64,000 nt of DNA from Kovacikia minuta CCNUW1. GTDB lineage: Bacteria > Cyanobacteriota > Cyanobacteriia > Leptolyngbyales > Leptolyngbyaceae. The notes below the pieces were generated by a model. The model did no database searches, was not told the origin of the DNA, and was given only the letters and a program-made list of their open reading frames with translations. Both the position numbers and the translations under genes were made by a program. Shown here piece after piece: positions 3,564-53,411 of the stretch (positions within the stretch are counted from its first letter, which is position 1; each line of letters opens with the position of its first letter). Location of the stretch: NCBI RefSeq assembly GCF_020091585.1, contig NZ_CP083582.1, positions 434,001-498,000 on the forward strand, in the 5' to 3' direction.

Positions 3564-4310
3564 GTGACTTTTCTCGAACTTCAAACCCTGACGCCCGATC
3601 TTTTGCCCGCCGCCCTGGAACTCGACCAGCGCTGCTTTGGTGGGCTATGGACCCTGGATGGCTATCGGCGAGAGCTGGAGAGCCCCAATAGTGAATTGCT
3701 GGTTCTGCAAAAGGCAGAAACCAGAAGACAGCGGGCACAAGGCGCGAGGCAGGCGTCAGAAGGAGGGAAAGCCCCAGGGACCCAGGGACGCGGAGATACA
3801 GAAAATTCCTCACTTCAACATTCAAAATCCTCCTCAACCGTCAGTCCTCAATTCTCAGAACCCATTCAACACTCAAAACTTAAAACTCAGTCTCCCTCAT
3901 CCCCTCACCCGACACCCTTTTTAGTTGCTCTTGGCTGTTACTGGGCAATTCTGGAAGAAGCCCATATCACCATTCTGGCTGTTGATCCGAATTACCAGCG
4001 TCAGGGAGTGGGGCAAGCCTTACTCTATGCTCTATTGCGCTCCGCCCAAGGGCGCGGGTTGGAAAGAGCAACCCTAGAAGTCAGAATTTCTAATCAATCA
4101 GCGCTTTCCCTATATGAAAAATTTGGGTTTCGAGAAGCGGGACGCAGAAAACGTTACTACCAGGATACGGGAGAAGATGCACTGGTATTGTGGCGAGGTG
4201 GGCTGCAATCCCCTGAATTTTCAGAGCTTTTGTACGATTGGCAGCCACGCATCAGGAATCGCCTTCAGGGTTCTGGATGGCAATTTTTCCCTGAGCAGGA
4301 TGACTCCTGA
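3564..4310 (+). CDS. rimI: Ribosomal protein S18-alanine N-acetyltransferase-like GNAT, with in-frame insert
   Basis: GNAT acetyltransferase; the RimI family acetylates the N-terminus of ribosomal protein S18. The GNAT core is present: TPDLLPAALELDQRCFGG at the start, then the acetyl-CoA motif ILAVDPNYQRQGVGQALL, and NQSALSLYEKFGFREAGRRKRYY, a RimI hallmark. A block of about 70 residues (ETRRQRAQGARQ to the SPHPTP stretch) splits the domain between LELLVLQ-like strand 2 and the strand FLVALGCYW; it is low complexity and encoded by the window's repeat modules. Start taken at GTG 3564, because residues before it do not resemble the family; an ATG-like start at 3495 is possible. Divergent from lysA. 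Confidence 0.82.
   Translation: MTFLELQTLTPDLLPAALELDQRCFGGLWTLDGYRRELESPNSELLVLQKAETRRQRAQGARQASEGGKAPGTQGRGDTENSSLQHSKSSSTVSPQFSEPIQHSKLKTQSPSSPHPTPFLVALGCYWAILEEAHITILAVDPNYQRQGVGQALLYALLRSAQGRGLERATLEVRISNQSALSLYEKFGFREAGRRKRYYQDTGEDALVLWRGGLQSPEFSELLYDWQPRIRNRLQGSGWQFFPEQDDS
3706..3922 (+). repeat. Modular low-complexity insert inside rimI
   Basis: Contains 'aggcagaaaccagaag', 'cccagggacgcggaga', 'attcaaaatcc', 'ctcaaaacttaaaactc' and 'ccctcacccgacacc' units in the same order as the lysA insert. Length keeps the reading frame. Confidence 0.8.
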
Positions 4311-42336: not shown

Positions 42337-42606
42337 CTAAAATTGGGATAAGAATTTGTCATATTCTGCATGGGAGCCAACCCAAAACCAAATGACTGTA
42401 TCTCCCTCTAGCTGCCCAACTGCCCGATAGTTTTTGCTAATCCGAGCAGAATAAATTGGTAATTCTGGATGCACCTTCTTGAAACGTAGGCTTGGATGTC
42501 CAGGGTCTTACTTGAATTGGCGATAGGCTTCGCGTGTCTGCTCCTGAACCTTTGCAGGTAGTTCCGAAAATGCTTGGCGAAATTTAGTGGTAGTGCGTGA
42601 CTTCAC
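42337..42606 (-). pseudogene. RelE/ParE-type toxin gene with an internal stop
   Basis: Starts at GTG 42606, overlapping the antitoxin stop (GTGA). Codons 1-32 read VKSRTTTKFRQAFSELPAKV to REAYRQFK; codon 33 (42508-42510) is TAA where the family has Gln; then DPGHPSLRFKKVHPELPIYS to FWVGSHAEYDKF follow in the same frame to a TAG at 42337. One C-to-T change would account for it. The rest of the 89-codon frame is intact. Confidence 0.82.
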
Positions 42607-42821
42607 AAGGTCTCTGGATCTAATTCTTGGGTTTTGCCTGCTCGATATTCAGTCATTGCCTCGGATGCAAGTCCAGCAAGGACATCCTGAGACTTCGCAA
42701 ACGTCGCATCCCACCGTGCCTCATCTTCGAGTTCTTCTAGGATTATTGCAGCGATCTCATCTTGCTCACGAGCAGGCAAGGATTTCAACCGAGAAATAGC
42801 TTGTTCAAGTAGCTCAGTCAT
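42603..42821 (-). CDS. Antitoxin-like protein of the decayed RelE pair
   Basis: 72 residues, acidic and helical (MTELLEQAISRLKSLPAREQ, then ILEELEDEARWDATF). This is the small antitoxin type that precedes RelE/ParE toxins in cyanobacteria. It overlaps the toxin start by 4 bp. The toxin has a nonsense codon, so the antitoxin is now an orphan. Confidence 0.8.
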   Translation of the reverse strand: MTELLEQAISRLKSLPAREQDEIAAIILEELEDEARWDATFAKSQDVLAGLASEAMTEYRAGKTQELDPETL

Positions 42822-43100
42822 AACTCTAATTTTGATTCAGAGAATACTATGGCAGGTGACAGGTGGCAGGTAGCAGGGAAGAAACAGCCAGTGATCAAGG
42901 GGTTCAGCGGTATAAAATGTCCTAACCTGCATGGCTACGGGTATATATAAAATTATCTCTGCTTGTTTGGCAGAATGAGTCAGGAAACACAGTTGATTCG
43001 TTTAAACCCAGCCAACAAAATCTCTTCGGGTTCAAATTGATTAGAATCGACGAAACCTTCTATCTGTAATTGCAAGCATCCATGTTTTTGCGCCCATAAT
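42822..43100. other. Intergenic region after the guanidine operon
   Basis: 279 bp. Contains the antitoxin promoter side and a 'ggtgacaggtggcaggtagcagg' style repeat near 42852. I see no clear terminator for the long operon here. Confidence 0.45.
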
Positions 43101-43706
43101 TTACAAGACAAGCTCCATACTTGTTTCAACCGCTCCGATAAACTCCTGGTGTTTAATCCGTGCCCCTTTCTGGAGATATTCGATCGCCTTCAGTGCTGCC
43201 CAATGCGCCTCCCAATCGGAACCGGCACAACAATCCTCGATCACATGGATGTGGTAGTCCCGCTGATGGGCATCGGCAGCGGTGTAGTGGATGCAAACAT
43301 TTGTCATTACACCCATCAACACCAAGGTATCTACGTTGAGTCCCCGCAGCAAAATTTCCAGATCAGTGCCCAAAAACCCACTGTAGCGGCGCTTGGTGAT
43401 GGCAAACTCCCCATCAGTGGGCGCTAGTTCGGCATAAAACTGGGTGCTTTCCCAGGTTTCCAGGCAATGCACAGGTTCTGCCCCATCCAATTCCCGCCCA
43501 AAGTCTACCATTTCCTTACGGTGAACTTCCTGGATATGGATAATAGGCAATTTTGCCCGCCGCGCAACCGCCAAAACCCGCTTCGCGTTGGGCAAAACCG
43601 CGTCTGTACCCACGTAGGACAGGGCGCATTCACCCGTAAACACACCTGCTTGAAAATCAATGCAGACCAGAGCTGTTTGATGATTGCGATCGAGTTTGAA
43701 TGACAT
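43101..43706 (-). CDS. Isochorismatase-family cysteine hydrolase (last gene of guanidine operon)
   Basis: 201 residues with the full catalytic triad in position: D17 (CIDFQAGVF), K104 (AITKRRYSGF) and C137 (GVMTNVCIHYTA), with the usual cis-peptide GVMTN before the Cys. The family includes amidases on small ureido or carbamoyl compounds (RutB, biuret hydrolase, N-carbamoylsarcosine amidase). The position downstream of a guanidine riboswitch suggests an amide released from guanidine or urea-like substrates; that is inference. Separated from the permease by 129 bp of repeat DNA. Confidence 0.9.
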   Translation of the reverse strand: MSFKLDRNHQTALVCIDFQAGVFTGECALSYVGTDAVLPNAKRVLAVARRAKLPIIHIQEVHRKEMVDFGRELDGAEPVHCLETWESTQFYAELAPTDGEFAITKRRYSGFLGTDLEILLRGLNVDTLVLMGVMTNVCIHYTAADAHQRDYHIHVIEDCCAGSDWEAHWAALKAIEYLQKGARIKHQEFIGAVETSMELVL

Positions 43707-43717
43707 TTGGGGAGAAG

Positions 43718-43830
43718 TTTTGAGTTTTAAGTTTTAAGTTTTGAGTTGAAGAACGCTCCTTGTCCCCTGTCCCCTTCTCCCTCTTCTGCCCTTCGCCTTT
43801 TCTGTCTTATCCCTAACATCTGCCACCTAA
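43718..43830. repeat. Intergenic low-complexity cassette
   Basis: 'gttttaagttttaagttttg', then 'tgtcccctgtccccttctccc', then 'ttctgcccttcgccttt', then 'aacatctgccacct'. Same modules and order as other cassettes. Confidence 0.8.
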
Positions 43831-43835
43831 ACTTC

Positions 43836-44687
43836 TCATTGCCTCGTCTGATCTGCCCACGGAGTCAACTTTTGAGACATCCATTTCAAGGCGTAGTCAA
43901 TCACCAACCCGATTAACCCAATTAATGCAATACAAAACAGGACTTTTTCGGTTTGTAGAAATCGCTGAGCCTGGATAATTTTGAAGCCCAGCCCATTTTG
44001 CGCCGCTACCAGTTCAGCAATCACCAGAAAGTTCCAGGCACCGGAGATGTTGACGCGGAGCGTGTCGAGGACACTGGGAAACGCTGCGGGAATGATAACT
44101 TTGAGGAGTACATCCCGCCGACCTGCGCCTAATGTATAGGCTACATTGATCATATCGTTGGGAATAAATTTCACAGCATCCGCAACCATAACGGCGTTGT
44201 ACAACACCACACCCAACATGATAATCAGGATTTTGGAGGCTTCCCCCAATCCCAGCCAGATCACAATCAGGGGAACAAAGGCAGTAACAGGCATGTAACG
44301 AACCGTTCCAACGATCGGTGCGAACAGGTTGTCCATGCTATGAAAGGTGCCCATCGCAATCCCGATCGGGACGCCGATGATCGCAGCCACTAGAAAGCCC
44401 GCCAACACTCGACCACTACTCACGAGAACATCCACCATCAGATTGTCTTCGGTGAACATCTTGACCCCTGCCTGAATTACCGCAGTTGGGGTGGGCAAGA
44501 ACATGGGCGGCACCAGTCCGCTGTAGCTGACGATCGCCCATAAAAGCAGAGGAACTGCAAGGGAAAGACTAACAATCAGCAGTGCCAACCGTCTTGAGAA
44601 GCCCTGACGAATGCTCCAAAAAACAGAGGGTTCCAGGTAACGATAGGCGCGCGGGGTCGGTGGTGCTGGGAGGGTGGAGGGGGTCAT
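43836..44687 (-). CDS. ABC transporter permease (guanidine operon)
   Basis: 283 residues, BPD_transp_1 fold with about six helices; the EAA loop is NVAYTLGAGRRDVLLKVIIPAAFPSVLDTL. NrtB/SsuC type. Its ATPase and binding protein lie upstream in the same run (49312 and 48204), separated by three enzyme genes. It is a close paralogue of the permease at 34198. Together with those partners it likely imports guanidine or a related cation, as I recall for the sll1080-sll1082 transporter next to Synechocystis gdmH. Confidence 0.88.
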   Translation of the reverse strand: MTPSTLPAPPTPRAYRYLEPSVFWSIRQGFSRRLALLIVSLSLAVPLLLWAIVSYSGLVPPMFLPTPTAVIQAGVKMFTEDNLMVDVLVSSGRVLAGFLVAAIIGVPIGIAMGTFHSMDNLFAPIVGTVRYMPVTAFVPLIVIWLGLGEASKILIIMLGVVLYNAVMVADAVKFIPNDMINVAYTLGAGRRDVLLKVIIPAAFPSVLDTLRVNISGAWNFLVIAELVAAQNGLGFKIIQAQRFLQTEKVLFCIALIGLIGLVIDYALKWMSQKLTPWADQTRQ

Positions 44688-44689
44688 AG

Positions 44690-44885
44690 GAAGGATGAAG
44701 GATGAGGGATGAGGGATGAAGGATAAAAAGGCAGAAGGGGGAGGGGAAAGGCAGAGGGCAGAGGGCAGAGGGCAGAAGGGGGAAAATGTGAGGCTCCAGT
44801 ACTATCAAATGACCAATGACCAATGACCAATGACAAACGATCAATGACCAACTCAAAACTTAAAACTTAAAACTCTTTCTCTTCC
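44690..44885. repeat. Intergenic low-complexity cassette
   Basis: 'gatgagggatgag' units, 'gcagagggcagaggg' units, 'atgaccaatgaccaatgac' and 'aaaacttaaaactt' in succession. Same family as the intragenic inserts. Confidence 0.85.
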
Positions 44886-44896
44886 CCACACCCTCA

Positions 44897-46255
44897 TTAA
44901 AAGAATTTCAAATACCGTTGAATTTCCCAATCTGAGACGTGGTTGTGGTATTCCTGCCATTCCTGGGATTTGAATTCGGTAAAGGTTTTAGCCATCAGGG
45001 AACCCATGACTTTTTCACTCAGCGGGTCACTGGCGAAGGCGGCGATCGCTTCTCCTAAGTTGCGGGGCAAAAACTGAATGCCCATTTCTGCCAGTTGTTC
45101 CAGGCTGTAGTTGTACATGTTTTCGGTGTGGGGTTCACCGGGGTCAAGTTGTTCGCGGATTCCTTCTAACCCGGCTGCCAGAATCATGGCTGCGCCCAGG
45201 TAGGGATTGGTGGAAATATCAGCGGCGCGACATTCAACCCGCCCGCCCGCAAGGGGGATGCGGAGCATGTTGGTGCGATTGTTGTTGCCGTAGCAGACGT
45301 AGATGGGTGCCCAGGTGAAGCCAGACATACTGCCTCTGGCGATCAGGCGCTTGTAACTGTTGACCGTGGGGGCGATGACCGCACAGATGGCAGGAGCATG
45401 TCTGAGAATGCCTGCAATGAACTGATAACCTAATTTAGAAAGTTTGCAACCGCGTGCATCGTTGGGGTCGTAGAACAGATTGTCTCCGGTTTTGAGATCT
45501 GCCAGCGACATGTTGTAGTGTGCACCGCTGCCCGTGCGATTGACAAAAGGTTTGGGCATGAAGGTGGCAAAGAAGCCATGCTTGCGGGCAATTTCTTTCA
45601 CCATTAGACGGAAGAAGGTGAATCGGTCTGCCATCTTCAGGGCATCGCAGTAGGCAAAGTCGGTTTCAAACTGTCCGTTGCCATCTTCATGGTCAAAGGA
45701 GTAGACATCCCAGCCCAGGCTATTCATCGCTTCGACGATTTCCGTCACCCAGGTGTAGTTGTCCAGCAGCCCTTGCAGGTCGTAACAGGGTTTTGCCAGG
45801 GTGTCGCGATCGCTCACCGGAACGGGCTTGCCCTCTTCTTCCTTAAGGATGAAAAACTCGGTTTCAATTCCCAGATTGAAGCTGAATCCCATCTCTGCCG
45901 CTGCTGCCAGCGATCGTTTGAGGATGCCCCGACAGCAGGCTTCAAAGGGTTCTCCTTTGAGGTACAAATCACTGGCAAACCAGGCAAACTCCGAGTTCCA
46001 GGGCAGAATCGTGACAGAATCGGGGTCGGGATGGGTGGCAACTTCCTCATCGCTCACATCCTGCGGTACCCCATCTAGAGCCGCACCGGTAAACAGTTCA
46101 GACCCCGCCATCATTTGTCCCAAATGGGACAGGGGAACGGATTTTGCCTTACACATGCCGTGGATATCGGCGAAGCTGGCGAGGGCGTATTTGACGCCTT
46201 TGGATTCGAGGGTGTTTTTGAGCGTTTGGAGTTCGGGGGTAAGGGTTTCGGTCAT
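44897..46255 (-). CDS. Type III glutamine-synthetase-like ligase
   Basis: 452 residues, full GS catalytic fold: FADIHGMCKAKSVPL start, GIETEFFIL (metal-binding EAE/ETE site), SFDHEDGNGQFETDF, KPFVNRTGSGAHYNMSL and RVECRAADISTNPYLGAA. This is the GlnT/type III short form that includes glutamine synthetase paralogues and gamma-glutamylmethylamide-type ligases, not the housekeeping GlnA. Substrate unknown; in this operon it could capture the ammonia from guanidine or ligate glutamate to an amine. 67 bp downstream of the creatininase gene. Confidence 0.9.
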   Translation of the reverse strand: MTETLTPELQTLKNTLESKGVKYALASFADIHGMCKAKSVPLSHLGQMMAGSELFTGAALDGVPQDVSDEEVATHPDPDSVTILPWNSEFAWFASDLYLKGEPFEACCRGILKRSLAAAAEMGFSFNLGIETEFFILKEEEGKPVPVSDRDTLAKPCYDLQGLLDNYTWVTEIVEAMNSLGWDVYSFDHEDGNGQFETDFAYCDALKMADRFTFFRLMVKEIARKHGFFATFMPKPFVNRTGSGAHYNMSLADLKTGDNLFYDPNDARGCKLSKLGYQFIAGILRHAPAICAVIAPTVNSYKRLIARGSMSGFTWAPIYVCYGNNNRTNMLRIPLAGGRVECRAADISTNPYLGAAMILAAGLEGIREQLDPGEPHTENMYNYSLEQLAEMGIQFLPRNLGEAIAAFASDPLSEKVMGSLMAKTFTEFKSQEWQEYHNHVSDWEIQRYLKFF

Positions 46256-46321
46256 CTTTAATGGGGTGTGGGGTGTGGGGTGTGGGTAAGGGAGATGGGG
46301 AGGGAGGGGAAGCGTGCTGCC

Positions 46322-47078
46322 TTAGGGCGGCATTTCCTCTAGGGGGGTTGCTTCTACAAGGGCTTGATTCAACTGAGTGCTGAGTTCTGTAATGCAGGTT
46401 TCTAGAATTTGCTGACCAAACTCTAAATCCGCCTGGCTGGGGGTTCCGACGGCTCCGTGAACGCTCTCTTTGTTGACGGTATAGGCGAAGAAGCAACTGG
46501 CGGAGCGATCGGGTTCGTCCTTTGCCTTTTCGATCTGCACCAGGTCGGGACGGAGAGCCAACATAACGGAGGTTTCGGCGCAGTTGGCATGAAAATTAGC
46601 CGCATCCTGATGATAAAACTCGTGAATTTTGGGGGTAATTTCCCAGATCGATCGCAACGCAATCCGCAAATCGGGGTAGGTATGGCGAACATTTTCCAAC
46701 CCACAGCGCAGGGGTGCCCAGTTGGTGACGTGCCCATTCAGCAACAGCAGGCGGGTAAACCCGGCACTACACACCCATTCGGCAATTTCCAAAATCAGTT
46801 TTGCCAGCGTTTCGGGACGGAGGGAAATGGTTCCCGCCCATTTCTTTGAGTGCCCCAGGGAGCAACCATAGGGCAGGGCAGGCAACACAGGAATTCCCGT
46901 GCGGGCAGAAACCCCGTGGGCAACTGCGATCGCCGAAAACGTGTCCACTCCCACCGGCAAATGCAACCCATGCTGCTCTGTCGCTCCCACCGGCAAAATG
47001 ACCATTTCCATCCCACGCTCTCGCAACTGGGGTAATTTCGTCCCAGGTCAATTCCTCCCACAACACTGGCTGATTCAT
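46322..47078 (-). pseudogene. Creatininase-family amidohydrolase with a +1 frameshift near its start
   Basis: Zn-dependent amidohydrolase of the creatininase family (the family also has MftE and FAPy deformylase). The N-terminal MNQPVLWEELTWDEI from ATG 47078 is in one frame; QLRERGMEMVILPVGATEQH and the rest are in the next. One inserted base at 47033 accounts for the switch. The body has the family metal motifs GATEQHGLHLPVGVDT and LNGHVTN, plus ANCAETSVML. A later start at 47026 (MRERGMEMV) might still give a near-complete protein, so it may not be dead. Confidence 0.85.
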
Positions 47079-47143
47079 GCTCAAGTCTGGATTACCCATC
47101 CCATCTAACCCTCAATCGATATTCTCCCTGCCCCCCGTGCCGC

Positions 47144-47929
47144 CTACTGCCCACTCTCCCTACTGCCCACGCCCCCTTCTCCTGGGCATCCAGGCTGCCG
47201 TCGCCGTTCCAGATACTCTCCGATGATCTGGTGGTACCGTTCCCGCCCCAAAATGGGATAGTGACCGGGATAAACTGCTTCCACAGGCAATTTCTGGAGG
47301 CGATCGTAGGTCGCAAGGTAGGTTGGGATGTGGCTGCAATGCAGTTCATCCAAGAGTTCTCCGTCGTAGATCACATCACCGGAGAAGAGTTCCCTGGATT
47401 TTGGGTCATACAGGGCAATGCAACCCGGAGAGTGCCCTGGTAGATGCAAGACTTCCAACCCCCGATCGCCCAGATCCAGCACGTCCCCCTCCTGCAAAGT
47501 GTGGGTCGGTTCCGTAGCTTGCAGGGTGTACTGCTCAACGGTAAAGCCCGCATGGGGCAACACCTCGAAATGGTCATCCTGCACCCAACCCTGCTCTGGA
47601 GTGCAGAGGGCTTCGTAGTCATCACCCTGCCTCAAGGCTTCCGCTTCGGCAGCATGAATAGCACGCCGATCGAACTCATGCATCCCACCGGAGTGATCAA
47701 AATGGATGTGGGAAGCGATCGCCAGTAGGGGTTTGTCCAGCAGTGAGGCAATATACTGACGCAAACTGGCAACCCCCAGACCCGTATCAACTAGCAAATC
47801 CTGGGTTTGTCCCTTGATTAACCAGAGATTGGCGCGGTTGTACCAGTAATAGTGAGGTTCAGTGATCAGGTACAGGTCATCGCGAATGCGTTGGGTGGAA
47901 AACCAACTTTGGCAAACTGATTTGGACAT
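47144..47929 (-). CDS. MBL-fold metallo-hydrolase
   Basis: 261 residues. Metal motif HIHFDHSGGM at 74-83 (HxHxDH), further ligands in GHSPGCIALYD and SGDVIYD, and YPGHYPILG near the end: a complete glyoxalase II-like metallo-beta-lactamase fold. Substrate unknown. No signal peptide. It lies between the binding protein (274 bp upstream, with a MITE) and the creatininase gene (66 bp). The C-terminus (residues from about 248, PGEGGVGSRESGQ) reads into repeat DNA. Confidence 0.88.
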   Translation of the reverse strand: MSKSVCQSWFSTQRIRDDLYLITEPHYYWYNRANLWLIKGQTQDLLVDTGLGVASLRQYIASLLDKPLLAIASHIHFDHSGGMHEFDRRAIHAAEAEALRQGDDYEALCTPEQGWVQDDHFEVLPHAGFTVEQYTLQATEPTHTLQEGDVLDLGDRGLEVLHLPGHSPGCIALYDPKSRELFSGDVIYDGELLDELHCSHIPTYLATYDRLQKLPVEAVYPGHYPILGRERYHQIIGEYLERRRQPGCPGEGGVGSRESGQ

Positions 47930-48007
47930 AAAGGGGGGGAAGGTAAGGGAGATGGAGGGTGAGGGATGAGGGATGGAGGATGAGGGATGAAGGATAAAAA
48001 CCTTTTT

Positions 48008-48150
48008 TCATACCCAATTAAATTGAGAATAGGGCAGATGCCTGTAGGGGCGGGTTTAGTCCGTACCGATTCAGCTAAACCAACCATCTCAACAAAACCC
48101 GCCCCTACGATTGTTCGCATTTGCCCAGAAGTTCATTTAAATCGGTATCA
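48008..48150. repeat. 143-bp MITE-like element, copy 2
   Basis: Reverse-complement match to 36436-36578 over the full length with scattered differences. Ends tcatacccaattaaatt and, inverted, atttaaatcggtatca. It splits the riboswitch operon between the binding-protein and MBL genes. Confidence 0.88.
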
Positions 48151-48203
48151 TTACCTCAAAACTCTGTACCACCTAACACCTAACACCTGACACCTGATAA
48201 TTC

Positions 48204-49208
48204 TCAGTTTGTTGATTTGACGATCGAATCGTCGTACAGGGACTCAACCACAAGGGGTTTGGGTACCATTTCGTACTTGTAGGCTGCTTGGGCGGTTAGT
48301 TCCAGGTTACCGATCAGGCTATTGGGATTATCTTTGTTAAATCCAATCGTTTTGTTCCCTTCCAGGTCAAACAACTTTGCGCCTTCTAACTGAGATTTCA
48401 CTTCCTCGCCTGAAACCCCCAATTTTTGTCCCGCAATTTTCAGGGCTTCTGGATCGCTGGCATTTAGCAGTTTCACCGCTTTATCCACAGCCCGGAAATA
48501 GGCTTGCAGATCGGTTTTGCGGGATTGAATCAGCTTGTCACGCGCAACCACCACATCAGCAATCAGGTTCGTGTCTTTGGTGGAAAAAATAACTTCGCCA
48601 CCGCCCTGTTTGGCAGCTTTGGTTAAATAAGGTTCATAGGAAACGGCAATATCCACTTGCTTGGCTGCAAATGCCGCTGCTGCGTCTGCTGCTGCTAAAT
48701 CTTTGATGGAAACATCTTTTTCGGTCAGTCCTGCTTTTTTTAGGTACGCAGCCAGGAGAACTTTTTCAAATAGGATGTTTTCGCGGGCGATCGTCTTGCC
48801 TTTTGCGTCCTGGGGAGACTTGATGTTACGCCCGATGATCCCATCTGAGCCGTTGGAGTAATCAATCAGATAAATCATTTTGATGGAGGGGTCTTTTGCC
48901 ACCATCTGAATCGCATCACCAGAGGTAAACCAGCCCAGGTCAAGTTTGCCTGCCAAAAAAGCGGTAATCTGCTCACTGGCACTCTGGAAAAAGATATCCT
49001 GAACATCCAGTTTCTCGTCTTTAAAGAAATTCTTGCCAACTGCAACATGGTGCCCTGAATAGCCAATCCAATTGTTTGTTGCCGAAACAAGGGGCTGAGC
49101 TTGAGGTGAGTTGGTAGCGCTGGGTTGCTGGGAAGAACACGCAACCACAAGCACAAGAGATACCAGCGCTAACGAAATTGAGCGCCAGACAGAAGAGAGT
49201 TTGAACAT
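48204..49208 (-). CDS. ABC transporter substrate-binding lipoprotein (guanidine operon)
   Basis: 334 residues. Lipobox LVVACSS at about residue 24, then NMT1/SsuA-type bilobed domain: ATNNWIGYSGHHVAVGKNFF, GKLDLGWFTSGDAIQMV and KGKTIARENILFEKVLLAAYL. Periplasmic capture of a small nitrogen compound; guanidine by context. Intact. 103 bp downstream of the ATPase gene. Confidence 0.87.
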   Translation of the reverse strand: MFKLSSVWRSISLALVSLVLVVACSSQQPSATNSPQAQPLVSATNNWIGYSGHHVAVGKNFFKDEKLDVQDIFFQSASEQITAFLAGKLDLGWFTSGDAIQMVAKDPSIKMIYLIDYSNGSDGIIGRNIKSPQDAKGKTIARENILFEKVLLAAYLKKAGLTEKDVSIKDLAAADAAAAFAAKQVDIAVSYEPYLTKAAKQGGGEVIFSTKDTNLIADVVVARDKLIQSRKTDLQAYFRAVDKAVKLLNASDPEALKIAGQKLGVSGEEVKSQLEGAKLFDLEGNKTIGFNKDNPNSLIGNLELTAQAAYKYEMVPKPLVVESLYDDSIVKSTN

Positions 49209-49311
49209 AAGGTAGGGTGTCTCAGAAAATGAATAGAGTATTGAGGAAGGGACAATAGTTATTAGTTGTTAGTTGTTAGTTATCAGTTGTTCACTGTTCA
49301 CTGTTCACTGT

Positions 49312-50163
49312 TTAAACAGCGCTTATATCACCTCGCAAATCATGAATGACCTGACGTTTAATCTCCACAAACTCAGGTGAGAGCTTAATTTCCAGTTCTC
49401 GATGTTTGGGTAAGCGAATCGAGATCTCTGAGTGGATTTGTCCCGGTCGGGAACTCATCACGTAGACCCGCTGCGATAGGTAGATGGCTTCTTCAACATC
49501 GTGGGTAATCATCAGAATCGTTACATGGGTTTGCTCCCAAAGTTCCAGCAAAAATTGCTGCATTTGCTCCTTCGTTTGAGCATCTAATGCACCAAAAGGT
49601 TCGTCCATCAGCAAAACGGCAGGTTCATTTGCCAGGGCACGGGCGATCGCCACGCGCTGCTTCATCCCTCCCGATAGCTGCTTTGGGTAAGCATCCGCAA
49701 ACTGGGATAACTTGACCACATTCAAAAAATAATGCACCCGTTCTTTTTGTTCCGCCTTTGGTATTTTGCGGAGTTGCAACCCAAAGGCAACGTTTTGAGC
49801 CACCGTCAACCAGGGGTAGAGGGTATACCCCTGAAACACCATGCCCCGATCGGACCCAGGTCGCCCCGTGACAGACTGACCATCCACCCATACCTCTCCG
49901 GTAGAAGGCGAAACCAGACCCGCGATGATATTGAGCAGGGTAGACTTGCCACACCCGGATGCCCCAACCAGACAAACAAACTCCCTGGGATGAATTTGCA
50001 GGTTGATGTCTTCCAACACCACCAGCTTTCTGCCCTGCACTGGGTAGTGTTTGAACACATTCTGCACCTTCAGTTTTGCCGCACTCAGGGATGGTTCATC
50101 TGATTCATTTAATTGGGTCGAATCCTCTCGCATGGGTTGGGTTACAGGGCAGGTATTGGACAT
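49312..50163 (-). CDS. ABC transporter ATPase (guanidine operon)
   Basis: 283 residues, NrtD/SsuB/TauB type. Walker A GASGCGKSTLLNIIAG, Q-loop MVFQGYTLYPWLTV, signature LSGGMKQRVAIARAL, Walker B LLMDEPFGALD and switch His in MITHDVEEA. An extra N-terminal tail of about 30 residues precedes the domain. Close paralogue of the frameshifted ATPase at 33254. Energises guanidine-operon import by context. Confidence 0.92.
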   Translation of the reverse strand: MSNTCPVTQPMREDSTQLNESDEPSLSAAKLKVQNVFKHYPVQGRKLVVLEDINLQIHPREFVCLVGASGCGKSTLLNIIAGLVSPSTGEVWVDGQSVTGRPGSDRGMVFQGYTLYPWLTVAQNVAFGLQLRKIPKAEQKERVHYFLNVVKLSQFADAYPKQLSGGMKQRVAIARALANEPAVLLMDEPFGALDAQTKEQMQQFLLELWEQTHVTILMITHDVEEAIYLSQRVYVMSSRPGQIHSEISIRLPKHRELEIKLSPEFVEIKRQVIHDLRGDISAV

Positions 50164-50253
50164 GGATGGGGAGAATGAAGAATTGAGAATGAAGAATTGA
50201 AAATTGAGAATGAAGAATTGGGGATTGATCCTGGCTGCTACGCCTGCCCCTCC

Positions 50254-50967
50254 TTAACTCCGTAAACTTTCCATCGGGTGCGCCTCTGGATGTCGCTTCG
50301 CAGAGACATGGGATGCAACCCAGTTAAACCAGGCGTCCAGCCCTTCCCCTGTTTTGGCAGAGACGCGAATGATGGTGACGGTTGGATTAATTTGGCGAAT
50401 GTTGGTTTCAATCTGGTTTAGATCAACATCCACGTGGGGAGCCAGGTCAGTTTTGGTAATCAGCAGACAATTCGCCTCGCGGAACATGATCGGATACTTC
50501 AGGGGCTTATCTTCGCCTTCGGTCACGCTGAGAAGGGCAACTTTGGCGTGTTCACCAACTTCAAATTCTGCCGGGCAGACGAGATTGCCCACATTCTCCA
50601 CCAGCACCAGATCAAAGCTGGTGGGATCGTACTCATGCTCCAGGCGATGAATACCCCCCGCAACCATTTTGGAGTCGAGATGGCACGATCGCCCAGTGTT
50701 AATGGCAATCACAGGAACCCCATACTGGCGCAGGCGATCGGCGTCCAGTTCCGTGGTCATGTCGCCTTCAATCACAGCAATCTTGAACCTGTGGCTTAAG
50801 GATGCGAGGGTTTTTTCCAAGAGAGCCGTTTTTCCGGCTCCCGGACTGCTCATGATGTTGAAGCAGGTAATGCCCCATTGATCAAAATGGGCACGGTTGT
50901 GATCGGCCCCTGCCTGGTTGGCATGAAGCAGGTTGATTCCAAGGGCAGCATCGAAGGTTTGGTGCAT
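50254..50967 (-). CDS. HypB-like nickel GTPase (GhaB-type chaperone)
   Basis: 237 residues. HypB fold: Walker [17 protein letters not shown] (40-47), [17 protein letters not shown], the metal-site [13 protein letters not shown] with Cys-His, [19 protein letters not shown], and [14 protein letters not shown]. The His-rich nickel store seen in many HypB N-termini is absent. No hydrogenase genes are near; it lies with a HypA-like gene directly after the guanidine hydrolase gene, the arrangement known for GhaA/GhaB, which load Ni2+ into GdmH. I therefore read it as the GdmH maturation GTPase. Confidence 0.93.
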
Positions 50968-50999
50968 AGGGTAGGTGTCAGGTGGTAGGTGTCAGGTGG

Positions 51000-51155
51000 T
51001 AGGTGTCAGGTGGTAGGTAGAAGTGCGGGGGTGAGACAGTGAACAGTGAACAGTCTCCAGAGAACAACCTGATAACTGATAACCGTTCACTGATAACTGA
51101 TAACCGTTCACTGATAACTGATAACTGTTCACTGGTAACTGATAACTGTTCACTG
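51000..51155. repeat. Tandem 21-bp repeat between hypB- and hypA-like genes
   Basis: Four units of 21 bp (ctgataactgataaccgttca and variants) at 51069-51152, preceded by three 'caggtggtaggtgt' units near 50980-51020. Confidence 0.85.
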
Positions 51156-51166
51156 GTAACTACCAC

Positions 51167-51538
51167 CTACCACCTACCACCTACTCCCTCTTTCACGTAT
51201 TCAATCCGATCGATCTTCAGTTCCCGCCCAGAGCGGATGTCATCCATCGGCGAGCGACAGTGGGGGCAGGCATATTGGATGCCAATTTCAGGGCGATAGT
51301 CCTGCTGGCATTGGTGGCAAAAGGCGATCAGGGGGGTTTCCTGAATTTCCAGGGCGGCTCCTTCCAGAAAGGTGCCACGAGTCTGCACTTCAAACGCAAA
51401 TTGAAGACTGACAGGCTCCACACAGGTAAATTGCCCCACAATCAGGTGAACCCTGGCAATCTGAGGGCGATCGGGTTGCTCTTCCCACCAGTTACGGATG
51501 GTCAGAATCAACGCCTTGGTCATGTCAGTTTCGTGCAT
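51167..51538 (-). CDS. HypA-like nickel chaperone (GhaA-type)
   Basis: 123 residues from ATG 51538. Begins MHE, the nickel-binding start of HypA, and carries a zinc site of two CxxC pairs (FCHQC and ACPHC). PVSLQFAFEVQTRGTFLEGAALE is a HypA stretch. The reading frame extends 25 codons upstream into repeat DNA, which is why the MHE start was chosen. Partner of the HypB-like GTPase; in this setting it should deliver nickel to the guanidine hydrolase, not to a hydrogenase. Confidence 0.92.
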   Translation of the reverse strand: MHETDMTKALILTIRNWWEEQPDRPQIARVHLIVGQFTCVEPVSLQFAFEVQTRGTFLEGAALEIQETPLIAFCHQCQQDYRPEIGIQYACPHCRSPMDDIRSGRELKIDRIEYVKEGVGGRW

Positions 51539-51638
51539 AGGTGGGGAATGGGGAGTAGGGAGTGGGGAATCGGGAAAACCAAATAAACCAATGACCAATG
51601 ACCAATCTCCCAACTCAAAACTTAAAACTCAAAACTCT

Positions 51639-52832
51639 CTAAGTCCAAGCTTCGTCAACATTCATGTTGGCTTCTGCATGAATATAGGCGGGCTTTTCTC
51701 TGCGGGGAAGTTGTCCTGAGACAACCAGATGCGCCATCGTGTCGCAGACAATGCGGGTTGCCATCAGCGCGGTCATATCGCTGACGTCGTAGGGTGGGGA
51801 AACTTCTACGACTTCAATGCCGCAGACGGGCGCACGCTGGATGATTTTACCCAGAAGACTGAGGGCTTCACGGGGTAGCAAGCCACCGGGTTCGGGCCAG
51901 CCTGTGCCAATGACGAAGCCCGCGTCGATCACATCAATGTCGAAGCTGATCCAAACGCAGTCGGTACCATCCAATGCCCGCTCCAGGGCAAAATCAGCAG
52001 CAGCATCCAGTCCGCCTTCGACAATATCGGTGACGGTCAGGATGTTGGTCATTCGTTCGCGGCAAACTTTGACACCCTGACGGGGCACCTGCCAGCCCCC
52101 GATGCCAAGCTGCACCAAATTTTTTGCGGGCGCGTTTGCCATGTTGGTGGCGTGGAACCAGGGGCAGGTGTGCATCCGTTCATCCAGGTCGGTTTCCTGG
52201 GTGTCGGCGTGGCGATCGAAGTGAATAATCCCAACTTTCTTATCGCCTAAATGACGACAAATTCCACGCACGGTGGGAAATCCGATCGAGTGATCGCCAC
52301 CAAGAAGGATAGGAAAAGCACCGGAGGCAAAAACGTGGGCAACGCCTTTGGAAATCTGGTCAAAGGATTTCTCGTTATTTGCGGGAATCGTAAAGATATC
52401 CCCCACATCACAAAGGGTGATCTGTTCGCGCAGATCAACCCCCAGTTCAAAGTTATAGGGAGTGTAGAGGGCAGAAATTCGCCGAATCCCCTGAGGACCA
52501 AAGCGGGTACCAGGGCGGTAGGTCGTACCAGAGTCGTGGGGCACCCCCACGATCGCCACGTCATACTCACCGACTCTCCGCACATCCTCCAAATAGGGCG
52601 CTTTTAGAAAGGTATTAATTCCAGCGTAGTGGGGTAGTTCACCACGGGAGAAGGTGGGAATGGAGCGATCACGAATACTTGCCGCCGCTTCCAACCCATA
52701 TTCCAATCCCTGGTTTACCTCCTGTTGCCAGCCCGTTAAGGGTAGACGGGCTTCCCGTTCGAGCGCACGATTTGCCTCGCTAGAAGGCTGGGGCGTGGAA
52801 TCGGGACTTTGAAACAGTGGATTGTCGGTCAT
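51639..52832 (-). CDS. gdmH: Guanidine hydrolase, GdmH type (agmatinase-like fold)
   Basis: Hydrolyses guanidine to urea and ammonia with a dinuclear Ni site, by homology to Synechocystis Sll1077 (long annotated as agmatinase). 397 residues from ATG 52832 (MTDNPLFQSP). Ureohydrolase metal motifs: GGDHS (178-182), HFDRHADTQ (204-212, in place of the usual DAHxD) and SFDIDVID (296-303). The DRHxDTQ..DERMHTCPWFHATN segment and GTGWPEPGG match what I remember of the GdmH group and differ from arginase and agmatinase. A long N-terminal arm (about 85 residues) is also as in GdmH. First gene after the guanidine-I riboswitch. Confidence 0.92.
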   Translation of the reverse strand: MTDNPLFQSPDSTPQPSSEANRALEREARLPLTGWQQEVNQGLEYGLEAAASIRDRSIPTFSRGELPHYAGINTFLKAPYLEDVRRVGEYDVAIVGVPHDSGTTYRPGTRFGPQGIRRISALYTPYNFELGVDLREQITLCDVGDIFTIPANNEKSFDQISKGVAHVFASGAFPILLGGDHSIGFPTVRGICRHLGDKKVGIIHFDRHADTQETDLDERMHTCPWFHATNMANAPAKNLVQLGIGGWQVPRQGVKVCRERMTNILTVTDIVEGGLDAAADFALERALDGTDCVWISFDIDVIDAGFVIGTGWPEPGGLLPREALSLLGKIIQRAPVCGIEVVEVSPPYDVSDMTALMATRIVCDTMAHLVVSGQLPRREKPAYIHAEANMNVDEAWT

Positions 52833-52965
52833 AGTGATGTCGATGCAGAACAAGGTACAGGACTGATGCAGTTTGCCAAAAACCTGGCGGTTTAAGCGTC
52901 GATGTGGGCATGCGATGCAATTGTGGGTTAAAACCTCCAGGGTTGGCGTAAGCCTAAGGTCGTTG

Positions 52966-53030
52966 AATTAGAAAAGCCCAGAAGAGTGCAACCATTGCCA
53001 TCCAGTTGCTATCTCCTCCCGGGCTTTTCT
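52966..53030 (-). terminator. Riboswitch expression-platform terminator
   Basis: In RNA sense, agaaaagccc and ttgcaac-side sequence at 53030-53005 pair with gttgcactcttctgggctttt at 52992-52971 through a long, slightly bulged stem, ending in ggcttttct. The 5' arm reuses the 3' part of the aptamer (aaaagcccggg), so aptamer folding and terminator folding exclude each other. Confidence 0.88.
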
Positions 53031-53140
53031 CCCGCCGTGTAGCTGTCAGGGTTTCTAACGAAAGAAATCTCGATTACTCGATCAACAGCTTGCTTCTCTC
53101 GGACCAGACACCCAAAAATCCTGAGCCGGAACCCTAGAAG
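53013..53140 (-). promoter_or_regulatory. Guanidine-I (ykkC) riboswitch
   Basis: Minus-strand RNA contains the conserved ykkC blocks in order: cttctagggttccgg (53140-53127 region), ggtccgagagaagc (53105-53092) and acacggcgggagaaaagccc then gggagg (53039-53014). Spacing and order match the guanidine-I class. It is followed by an overlapping terminator, the layout of an ON switch that allows transcription when guanidine is bound. A CATAAT at 53148-53153 (read on the minus strand) could be the -10 box just upstream. It controls the ten-gene run down to 43101. Confidence 0.96.
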
Positions 53141-53411
53141 CGTATGATTATGTTGGAAAACCTATGCCAGAAATAGAGTTATCAAGAAATGCAGGCATCG
53201 TATGTATCAAAATTAACAATTTCCGAAATGGAGTCAAAAGTCTAGAGTCAAAAGTCTGGAGTCAAAAGTCTGGAGACAGAGGGAGACAGAAGGAGACAGC
53301 CATTCTAGATTCTGGCCCCTGGATTCTATCCAGGACAGCAATGTCTCCAGTGCCACCCCATCCGCCTCGGAACCGCTATAAGATAGATAACAATTCTGGT
53401 TTGATACTTCC

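What the first reader, a model, noticed from the sequence alone, without database searches (positions are those of the whole stretch)
43101..53140. Guanidine-riboswitch operon with four enzymes beyond the known import/hydrolysis pathway
A textbook guanidine-I riboswitch leads a ten-gene, same-strand run. GdmH-type hydrolase, HypA/HypB-like chaperones and an ABC transporter form the pathway known from Synechocystis (Sll1077 and neighbours). Here the transporter genes are interleaved with an MBL hydrolase, a creatininase-family amidohydrolase, a type III GS-like ligase and an isochorismatase-type hydrolase. These all act on C-N or amide bonds or nitrogen capture, so the operon may process substituted guanidines, or urea or amides downstream. 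I know of no published role for these four in guanidine metabolism. The functional reading is inference; gene identities are from motifs.
Basis: partly seen in the sequence, partly recalled or inferred. Interest (0 to 1): 0.92.

Follow-up and report, generated by a model that had tools for sequence, protein, structure and literature searches.

The report
Guanidine operon with unusual glutamyl ligase
A cyanobacterial operon that starts with a guanidine-sensing RNA switch joins the known guanidine-degrading enzyme to a glutamine-synthetase-like ligase with an altered active site, and this ligase recurs beside guanidine genes in several bacterial groups, which hints at an unexplored branch of guanidine use.

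Summary
A guanidine-I riboswitch (84.3 bits) leads ten same-strand genes: GdmH, HypA, HypB, ABC ATPase, binding protein, MBL hydrolase, creatininase-family hydrolase, GS-III-like ligase (GS3), permease, isochorismatase-type hydrolase. The four 'extra' genes are not one unit. (1) GS3 forms one clade (100% SH-aLRT). It sits in a guanidine-I operon in 7 of 7 genomes that hold it among 386 sampled. In the window's family 13 of 18 copies lie within 10 kb of a switch, 6 of them directly led by it. It keeps the catalytic residues of gamma-glutamylmethylamide synthetase, but Q175 and N188 are S and D in 49 of 49 members. (2) The creatininase-like gene precedes GS3 in 30 of 30 readable loci from three phyla, including Thiobacillus-type guanidine operons; here it has an apparent one-base frameshift. 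(3) MBL and isochorismatase belong to an importer module that stands alone elsewhere. Best reading: guanidine uptake and hydrolysis plus a gamma-glutamyl-ligase branch acting on guanidine or an analogue. Linkage is shown; substrate is inferred. The literature searches made found no published role.

The parts
53014..53148 (-). guanidine-I riboswitch aptamer
   Evidence: RF00442, 84.3 bits, positions 1-107 of 107
51639..52832 (-). GdmH-type Ni guanidinase (arginase family)
   Evidence: PF00491; 803 bits to 7esr/7oi1; searched as 51639-52835
51167..51538 (-). HypA-like Ni chaperone
   Evidence: TIGR00100 123.8 bits, cut-off 88.1; searched as 51167-51535
50254..50967 (-). HypB-like Ni GTPase
   Evidence: TIGR00073 310 bits, cut-off 121
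49312..50163 (-). ABC ATPase (NitT/TauT/Ssu type)
   Evidence: PF00005; 71-85% to ATPases near GS3 in most loci of related cyanobacteria
48204..49208 (-). substrate-binding lipoprotein, SsuA/NMT1-like
   Evidence: PF09084; 73% to the one behind a second guanidine-I switch in G027 (L015)
47144..47929 (-). MBL-fold hydrolase (importer-module gene)
   Evidence: PF00753; close homologues in 7 of 386 phylum genomes, in 5 of the 6 others near homologues of this ATPase and permease
46322..47078 (-). creatininase-family metal amidohydrolase; apparent one-base frameshift near the 5' end (ORF from 47026)
   Evidence: PF02633 199 bits; frames; compared residues kept except E122
44897..46255 (-). GS-III/GmaS-like gamma-glutamyl ligase (GS3)
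   Evidence: TIGR03105 593 bits, cut-off 470; 443 bits to 9qur glutamate-methylamine ligase; active-site changes
43836..44687 (-). ABC permease
   Evidence: PF00528; 74-88% near GS3 in most loci of related cyanobacteria
43101..43706 (-). isochorismatase-type cysteine hydrolase (importer-module gene)
   Evidence: PF00857 152 bits; BiuH 88.6 bits against a cut-off of 370; 73-78% next to the permease in L116, L152, L153

Best explanation
A guanidine-inducible nitrogen-scavenging operon. The riboswitch senses guanidine (by family). An ABC importer of a type distinct from the usual guanidine transporter brings in guanidine or a close analogue (inferred). GdmH with HypA/HypB hydrolyses guanidine to urea and ammonia (established for the Synechocystis homologue), and a urease in the genome finishes it (gene present). 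The added step is GS3, an ATP-dependent ligase of the gamma-glutamylmethylamide-synthetase type whose active site has gained a carboxylate (N188D) and lost a larger side chain (Q175S). It most likely joins glutamate to guanidine or a small guanidino/amidino compound and so makes a gamma-glutamyl conjugate (inferred). The creatininase-like metal amidohydrolase, the regular partner of GS3 outside this lineage, most likely hydrolyses that conjugate or its precursor (inferred); in this genome its gene appears damaged. MBL and isochorismatase came with the importer module.
For: Switch-gdmH-hypAB-ATPase-SBP-MBL-creatininase remnant-GS3 in G392. Close GS3 in 7 of 386 genomes, all 7 in guanidine-I operons (0.04 expected); 13 of 18 family copies within 10 kb of a switch (0.12 expected). 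Creatininase-like gene before GS3, directly or one gene away, in 30 of 30 readable loci from three phyla. Guanidine-I in 9 of the 10 loci L122-L131, leading SBP-permease-ATPase-creatininase-like-GS3; deiminase-type and urea/guanidine carboxylase genes beside them. One GS3 clade, 100%. D177, E186 and R312 kept 37 of 37; S175/D188 in 49 of 49; roles from PMC7948447 (passages). All 15 distinct GS3-bearing cyanobacteria tested hold GdmH or a long carboxylase match.
Against: No substrate is shown. Q175 and N188 are listed as ATP contacts as well as pocket residues, and two further ATP contacts (W189, H237) also differ, so the changes need not concern the amine. In 7 of the 13 family cases the switch lies downstream of GS3, between ATPase and binding protein, and does not lead GS3. 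21 of 49 clade members have no guanidine-I found nearby (L113, L130, L137, L142 are cut by contig ends), and six proteobacterial MAGs show no guanidine-I, GdmH or long carboxylase match. In five cyanobacterial loci Rieske oxygenase genes flank the creatininase-like gene instead. Both known guanidine pathways work without GS3. The creatininase-like gene is damaged or absent in several GS3 operons. 34 of 42 family genomes carry guanidine-I anyway, and related species are not independent.
Confidence: 0.4

Rival explanations
1. GS3 and the creatininase-like hydrolase handle a different imported amine (methylguanidine, dimethylguanidine or another alkylated amine); guanidine is only a product or co-substrate that induces the operon. 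The released or glutamylated amine is then oxidised, in some strains by Rieske oxygenases.
For: Rieske oxygenase genes flank the creatininase-like gene in L112-L114, L116 and L141, and a Rieske protein follows guanidinase operons of marine picocyanobacteria (PMC10119275, passages; weak matches in 11 loci of family f19). GS-like ligation of an amine is known in 1-naphthylamine degradation (PMC11335346, listing and start of abstract only). Ni ureohydrolases for dimethylguanidine exist (PMC11399263, passages), and a PuuA entry stands in the metformin plasmid table of PMC9800807 (passages). The pair occurs in MAGs without guanidine genes.
Against: Guanidine riboswitches are described as highly specific for guanidine (PMC11410670, passages). 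No Rieske match was seen in the switch-bearing loci of the window's own family or of the Thiobacillus type.
Confidence: 0.3
2. GS3 is simply an extra glutamine synthetase that captures the ammonia released from guanidine.
For: TIGR03105 'type III glutamate-ammonia ligase' is passed, and the operon releases ammonia.
Against: The ammonium-binding Asp50' and the flap Glu of glutamine synthetases are replaced by Thr and Trp (roles as described in PMC7948447). The GmaS enzyme with this layout has a much higher Km for ammonium than for methylamine.
Confidence: 0.1
3. Part of the operon is hitchhiking or decaying cargo: the importer module (ATPase, permease, MBL, isochorismatase) joined on behind riboswitch-gdmH-hypAB, and the creatininase-like gene is a pseudogene.
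For: MBL, an isochorismatase and this ABC type occur together without GS3 or creatininase gene in L181-L185, with a different binding protein; in L181 the isochorismatase is of another type. Creatininase-like gene shifted here, a remnant in G392, short ORFs in L162 and L163, absent from the G400 and G405 stretches.
Against: MBL and isochorismatase are kept with GS3 in G400 and G392. The shifted ORF is open and 84-87% identical to most cyanobacterial homologues found, so the shift is recent or an assembly error.
Confidence: 0.3
4. Pure chance neighbourhood.
For: Individual members vary between relatives.
Against: The GS3-riboswitch adjacency counts and their chance expectations.
Confidence: 0.03

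Closest known systems
Synechocystis-type guanidinase operon (gdmH-hypA-hypB-ABC, sll1077-sll1082)
   Same: guanidine-I switch, GdmH, HypA and HypB in the same order
   Different: ABC genes of another type, split and reordered; MBL, creatininase-like, GS3 and isochorismatase genes added (compared with the usual cyanobacterial operon; Synechocystis itself not fetched)
Guanidine carboxylase pathway (carboxylase, deiminase pair UAAP1/UAAP2, allophanate hydrolase)
   Same: in Thiobacillus-type loci it lies beside or in one run with the creatininase-like gene and GS3 behind guanidine-I
   Different: no long carboxylase match in the window genome; best match covers residues 2-439 of 1197 at 47%
gamma-Glutamylmethylamide synthetase (GmaS; RhGmaS 7cql, 9qur)
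   Same: same family by sequence; D177, E186 and R312 kept, no Asp50', Trp in the flap
   Different: separate clade; Q175S, N188D, W189F, A48T, H237N in all, A298F in 36 of 37
Creatininase / MftE (creatininase family)
   Same: E34, H36, D45, H120, H178, E183 conserved 31 of 31
   Different: E122 is Thr 31 of 31; scores below the creatininase and MftE cut-offs
Biuret / guanylurea hydrolases (isochorismatase-like)
   Same: superfamily
   Different: BiuH score 88.6 against a cut-off of 370; GuuH not compared directly
Metformin-plasmid regions with PuuA, HypAB and ureohydrolase entries
   Same: a GS-like gene listed with Ni ureohydrolase and chaperone genes (PMC9800807, passages)
   Different: annotated PuuA; no creatininase-like match at E <= 1e-40 nor GS3 match at E <= 1e-150 in 72,556 plasmids

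Membership tests
Guanidine-I riboswitch | RF00442 covariance model above gathering score, full length | tested here: met
   84.3 bits, 1-107 of 107
Guanidine-I riboswitch | guanidine binding and gene control | not testable with these tools
   needs in-line probing or a reporter
GdmH Ni guanidinase | close similarity to the characterised enzyme, with HypA and HypB | tested here: met
   803 bits to 7esr/7oi1; HypA and HypB adjacent
Usual cyanobacterial guanidine ABC transporter | same transporter type and order SBP-permease-ATPase | tested here: not met
   order ATPase-SBP-...-permease; SBP about 25-35% to the usual type
Type III glutamate-ammonia ligase (TIGR03105) | equivalog score above cut-off | tested here: met
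   593 against 470 bits
Glutamine synthetase (ammonia) | Asp50' ammonium ligand and flap Glu | tested here: not met
   Thr 37 of 37 and Trp 37 of 37 at the matching positions
GmaS | D177, E186, R312 catalytic residues | tested here: met
   37 of 37
GmaS | the seven methylamine-pocket residues listed in PMC7948447 | tested here: not met
   five kept 37 of 37; Q175 to S and N188 to D in all
GmaS | methylamine as preferred substrate | not testable with these tools
   needs enzyme assay
Creatininase (TIGR04448) | equivalog cut-off; Glu122 (metal ligand, recalled) | tested here: not met
   134 against 235 bits; Thr at 122, 31 of 31
MftE | TIGR03964 cut-off | tested here: not met
   114 against 172 bits
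Biuret hydrolase BiuH | NF050097 cut-off | tested here: not met
   88.6 against 370 bits
Guanylurea hydrolase GuuH | similarity to GuuH | not tested
   no GuuH sequence was at hand

The most novel reading that the evidence does not exclude
A third, acylation-based guanidine route. GS3 spends ATP to make gamma-glutamylguanidine, whose acylated guanidine group is less basic and easier to hydrolyse (general chemistry, recalled). The creatininase-like metalloenzyme then deiminates it to gamma-glutamylurea or releases urea, and an acylurea hydrolase (isochorismatase type, or allophanate hydrolase in Thiobacillus-type loci) returns glutamine or glutamate plus ammonia. This would mirror the known carboxylase pathway with glutamyl in place of carboxyl, and could be the whole pathway in MAGs where only a permease, the creatininase-like gene and GS3 stand together (L132, L133, L136). 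Entirely inferred from gene context and active-site residues.
Probability: 0.15. Interest if true: 0.85.

Novelty: new variant of a known kind. Interest (0 to 1): 0.62.

Why it matters
Guanidine is now seen as a real nitrogen source and stressor, yet the review seen here (PMC12186494, passages) describes two degradation pathways plus export. A glutamyl ligase and amidohydrolase that keep turning up beside guanidine switches, with either pathway, would be a third kind of guanidine chemistry (conjugation) or a door to natural substituted guanidines. GS3 belongs to a family already expressed and crystallised (GmaS, PMC7948447), so the substrate question can be answered with a short panel assay.

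Tried and rejected
Rejected: (a) the four genes as one set. (b) GS3 as a plain glutamine synthetase. (c) The creatininase-like gene as true creatininase. (d) A plasmid-borne cassette: no creatininase-like match at E <= 1e-40 and no GS3 match at E <= 1e-150 in the plasmid collection. (e) A hidden guanidine-I in the Rieske-type loci: none to E = 1 in L112, L114, L116, although their genomes hold guanidine-I matches elsewhere, in L114's genome only below the cut-off.

Led nowhere: isochorismatase neighbours on plasmids gave mixed contexts (nitrile hydratase, amino-acid and other ABC genes). Three metformin papers held none of my ligase terms, and a fourth held only 'operon'. Structure prediction was not run. 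Not controlled: GdmH/carboxylase presence in GS3-less genomes of the same family; independence of related species in the adjacency counts. Limits of the counts: one search scored at most four candidates per genome; searches used stricter filters that lose weak riboswitches; of the second class only 11 stretches were fetched. Rows dropped: five near-duplicate short loci (L082, L084-L087), L070 also, identical sequences entered once; loci under 4,000 bases were not in the database.

Full report
Observation. The window holds one guanidine-I aptamer at 53148-53014 (minus strand, 84.3 bits, gathering score 63), and the genome has no other match at E <= 0.001. Ten minus-strand genes follow it. Pfam and NCBIfam give arginase family, HypA, HypB, ABC ATPase, SsuA/NMT1-like binding protein, MBL hydrolase, creatininase family, glutamine synthetase (TIGR03105, 593 bits, cut-off 470), ABC permease and isochorismatase. 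The first enzyme is GdmH by similarity to the PDB chains 7esr/7oi1 (803 bits). Gaps are about 65-274 bp, and most hold 7-bp tandem repeats. Terminator-like sites are no more frequent than in shuffles, which allows but does not show one transcript.

A damaged member. The creatininase-family ORF (47026-46322) starts at a TTG. An ATG at about 47078 opens another frame that encodes MNQPVLWEELTWDEITP, like the N-terminus of intact relatives (for example PVLWEELTWEQIT..LR). The two frames differ by one base near a run of C at about 47030. The rest of the ORF is open. Cyanobacterial homologues found are 84-87% identical in nine of eleven loci, 78% in one, and 90% over a partial match in one. So this is a recent mutation or an assembly error. 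In relatives the gene is a C-terminal remnant (G392), a short ORF (L162, L163) or absent from the stretch (G400, G405).

Who else has it. Guanidine-I occurs in 121 of 386 sampled genomes of the phylum. I fetched 78 stretches around such switches: those of the same class and family, and 11 from the second class. The usual cyanobacterial operon is gdmH-hypA-hypB-SBP-permease-ATPase, with ABC proteins only distantly like the window's (SBP about 25-35%, permease about 38-48%, ATPase about 48-62%). Window-type ABC genes (74, 73, 85%) stand behind a second guanidine-I switch in G027 (L015).

GS3. Close homologues (67% or more) occur in 7 of the same 386 genomes; the next matches are at 45% or less (at most four candidates scored per genome). 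All 7 lie in guanidine-I/gdmH operons; chance would give 0.04. In the window's family, 16 of 42 genomes hold 18 copies, and 13 of 18 lie within 10 kb of a guanidine-I switch (positions; 0.12 expected). In six of the 13 the switch leads the run that contains GS3 (G000, G392, G400, G401:C42, G405, G431). In the other seven (G388, G402, G420, G423, G424, G425, G428) it lies downstream of GS3, between the ATPase and the binding protein, so it is near but does not lead GS3. The five copies without a near switch are G387:C11, G421, two in G427 and G401:C71. These species are related, so the counts are not independent. Guanidine-I is itself common in this family (34 of 42).

Gene orders. G392: switch-gdmH-hypA-hypB-ATPase-SBP-MBL-creatininase remnant-GS3, with permease-isochorismatase on another contig. 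G400: switch-ATPase-SBP-MBL-GS3-permease-isochorismatase. G405: switch-gdmH-hypA-hypB-ATPase-SBP-GS3-permease. L115: switch-ATPase-SBP-MBL-creatininase-GS3-permease. A Stenomitos locus (L118, G401:C42) and the Centralia MAG (L111, G431): switch-ATPase-SBP-creatininase-GS3-permease. Five loci of family f19 (small genomes, taken for picocyanobacteria by inference): gdmH-hypA-hypB-GS3-SBP, followed by permease and ATPase in four (L062 ends inside the SBP gene).

Beyond the phylum. A scan of one genome for each of 84,980 species with the creatininase-like protein gave 32 loci: 11 from cyanobacteria, 20 from proteobacteria and one from an actinobacterium, by record title. In all 30 where the contig runs on, GS3 follows on the same strand, directly or after one gene; L125 and L141 end too early. 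Among the ten loci L122-L131, guanidine-I was found in nine (L130 starts at the transporter genes and had none). They carry SBP-permease-ATPase-creatininase-like-GS3, GS3 being cut off in L125 and cut short in L126. In L122-L124 and L127-L130 two DUF1989 genes follow, and in L131 they stand divergently; a carboxylase gene is seen in all of these but L124, and allophanate hydrolase in L122, L127, L128, L130 and L131. In L122 these genes are UAAP1 and UAAP2, a TIGR02712 urea carboxylase-type protein (1928 bits) and allophanate hydrolase. UAAP1/UAAP2 as carboxyguanidine deiminase is recalled; that carboxylases annotated for urea can prefer guanidine is stated in PMC12186494. L121 (guanidine-I at 3629-3741) and the actinobacterial L138 (no guanidine-I) also have such genes beside the pair. 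So the pair accompanies both known guanidine pathways.

Results against the link. Seven alpha- and betaproteobacterial loci (L132-L137, L140) had no guanidine-I nearby, nor had L139 and L142. Six of the genomes behind these loci (L132, L133, L134, L136, L139, L142) showed no guanidine-I, GdmH or long carboxylase match anywhere, only matches of about 440 residues; genomes behind L135, L137 and L140 do hold a guanidine-I switch elsewhere. In L112-L114, L116 and L141, Rieske oxygenase genes (PF00355 and PF00848 in the two tested) flank the creatininase-like gene, and L112, L114 and L116 have no switch even at E = 1.

Genome-level link. Among 15 distinct GS3-bearing cyanobacteria tested, seven have GdmH and eight have a long carboxylase match (fragments in G433 and G434); none has both. 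I did not run the same test on GS3-less relatives. Urease alpha is present in 13 of 14 genomes tested, one of them Thiobacillus; it was missing from the 87%-complete G392.

What GS3 is. The nearest solved structures are glutamate-methylamine ligase 9qur (443 bits) and GmaS 7cql (340 bits), ahead of true glutamine synthetases. On an alignment with 37 clade members and 21 others, the catalytic D177, E186 and R312 and the listed glutamate and metal ligands (E122, E124, E179, G231, H235, R288, E325, R327) are kept 37 of 37. The glutamine-synthetase Asp50' is Thr and the flap Glu position is Trp. Of the seven residues that PMC7948447 (passages read) lists for the methylamine pocket, five are kept and two are changed in all members: Q175 to S and N188 to D, confirmed in 49 of 49 unique sequences. 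A48 (T), W189 (F) and A298 (F, 36 of 37) differ too. A caution: the same paper lists Q175 and N188, and also W189 and H237 (here F and N), as ATP contacts, so the nucleotide site differs as well. The clade has 100% SH-aLRT support; 28 of its 49 members have a switch nearby, spread over gammaproteobacteria, Hydrogenophilales, family f19, G170 and the window's family (a quick tree). A smaller, more acidic pocket in an otherwise complete ligase would suit a larger, strongly cationic amine such as guanidinium; this is inference.

What the creatininase-like protein is. It keeps E34, H36, D45, H120, H178 and E183 (31 of 31) but has Thr for E122 (31 of 31; E122 as a metal ligand is recalled), and it scores below the creatininase and MftE cut-offs. 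A metal-dependent amidohydrolase of unknown substrate is the safe description.

MBL and isochorismatase. Close MBL homologues occur in 7 of 386 genomes. All seven genomes also have guanidine-I, but in the six others it lies far from MBL. In five of those six, MBL stands with homologues of the window's ATPase (63-76%) and permease (62-80%), a different binding protein (29-35%), and in four of the five the same isochorismatase (63-76%); the fifth (L181) has a second isochorismatase type. None of these stretches holds GS3 or the creatininase-like gene. L180 has MBL alone. So these two genes belong to an importer module that has been joined to the guanidine genes, with another binding protein, in the window's lineage.

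Literature. Searches of a held open-access library (in only the top 15-30 papers were listed) showed no paper that gives GS-III-like or creatininase-like proteins a role in guanidine metabolism. Of 11 papers holding at least three of guanidine, creatininase, glutamine synthetase and riboswitch, none holds 'creatininase'; 'glutamylguanidine' and its spelling variants gave 0 papers. The 2025 review PMC12186494 holds none of my four enzyme terms. A Rieske protein after the guanidinase cluster of marine picocyanobacteria was noted in PMC10119275 (passages). Methylguanidine demethylation by a dioxygenase and lyase in a guanidine-riboswitch operon is a related precedent (PMC12508155, passages). The 2017 riboswitch paper was not held; the 2021 and 2022 papers on guanidine use were not read, so earlier mention there cannot be excluded.

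Verdict. The operon is real and largely conserved in a relative. The new part is a guanidine-linked glutamyl ligase clade with its amidohydrolase partner; the substrate is open.

Noticed in passing
window 47020-47080: Apparent one-base frameshift near a run of C at the 5' end of the creatininase-family gene; mutation or assembly error.
   Followed up: partly
window 42850-53300: Most gaps between the operon genes hold 7-bp (or 14/21-bp) tandem repeats.
   Followed up: no
L181-L185: Stand-alone module of NitT/TauT-type ABC genes, MBL and isochorismatase, in three loci also a desaturase-like gene (the query is PF00487); substrate unknown.
   Followed up: partly
L112, L113, L114, L116, L141: One or two Rieske oxygenase genes around the creatininase-like gene, and in L112-L114 and L116 an SDR gene near GS3; no guanidine switch in L112, L114, L116 even at E = 1.
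   Followed up: partly
G389:C1:1286776-1287210; G403:C41:146206-146662; G422:C178:5649-6119: Pairs of guanidine-I switches about 235-270 bp apart on opposite strands, a divergent double switch.
   Followed up: no
L119:11055-16698: Two GS3 copies in tandem after the creatininase-like gene, then a fused DUF1989-aminomethyltransferase protein (PF09347, PF01571, PF08669), which suggests a further step.
   Followed up: partly
L169: Isochorismatase homologue (64%) beside nitrile hydratase genes on a Gloeocapsopsis plasmid.
   Followed up: no
G000:C1:2098735-2100027: A second, more distant GS-III-like gene (45%) in the window's genome.
   Followed up: no
window 42603-42821: Small minus-strand ORF downstream of the operon that looks like an antitoxin-type protein (by eye only).
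   Followed up: no
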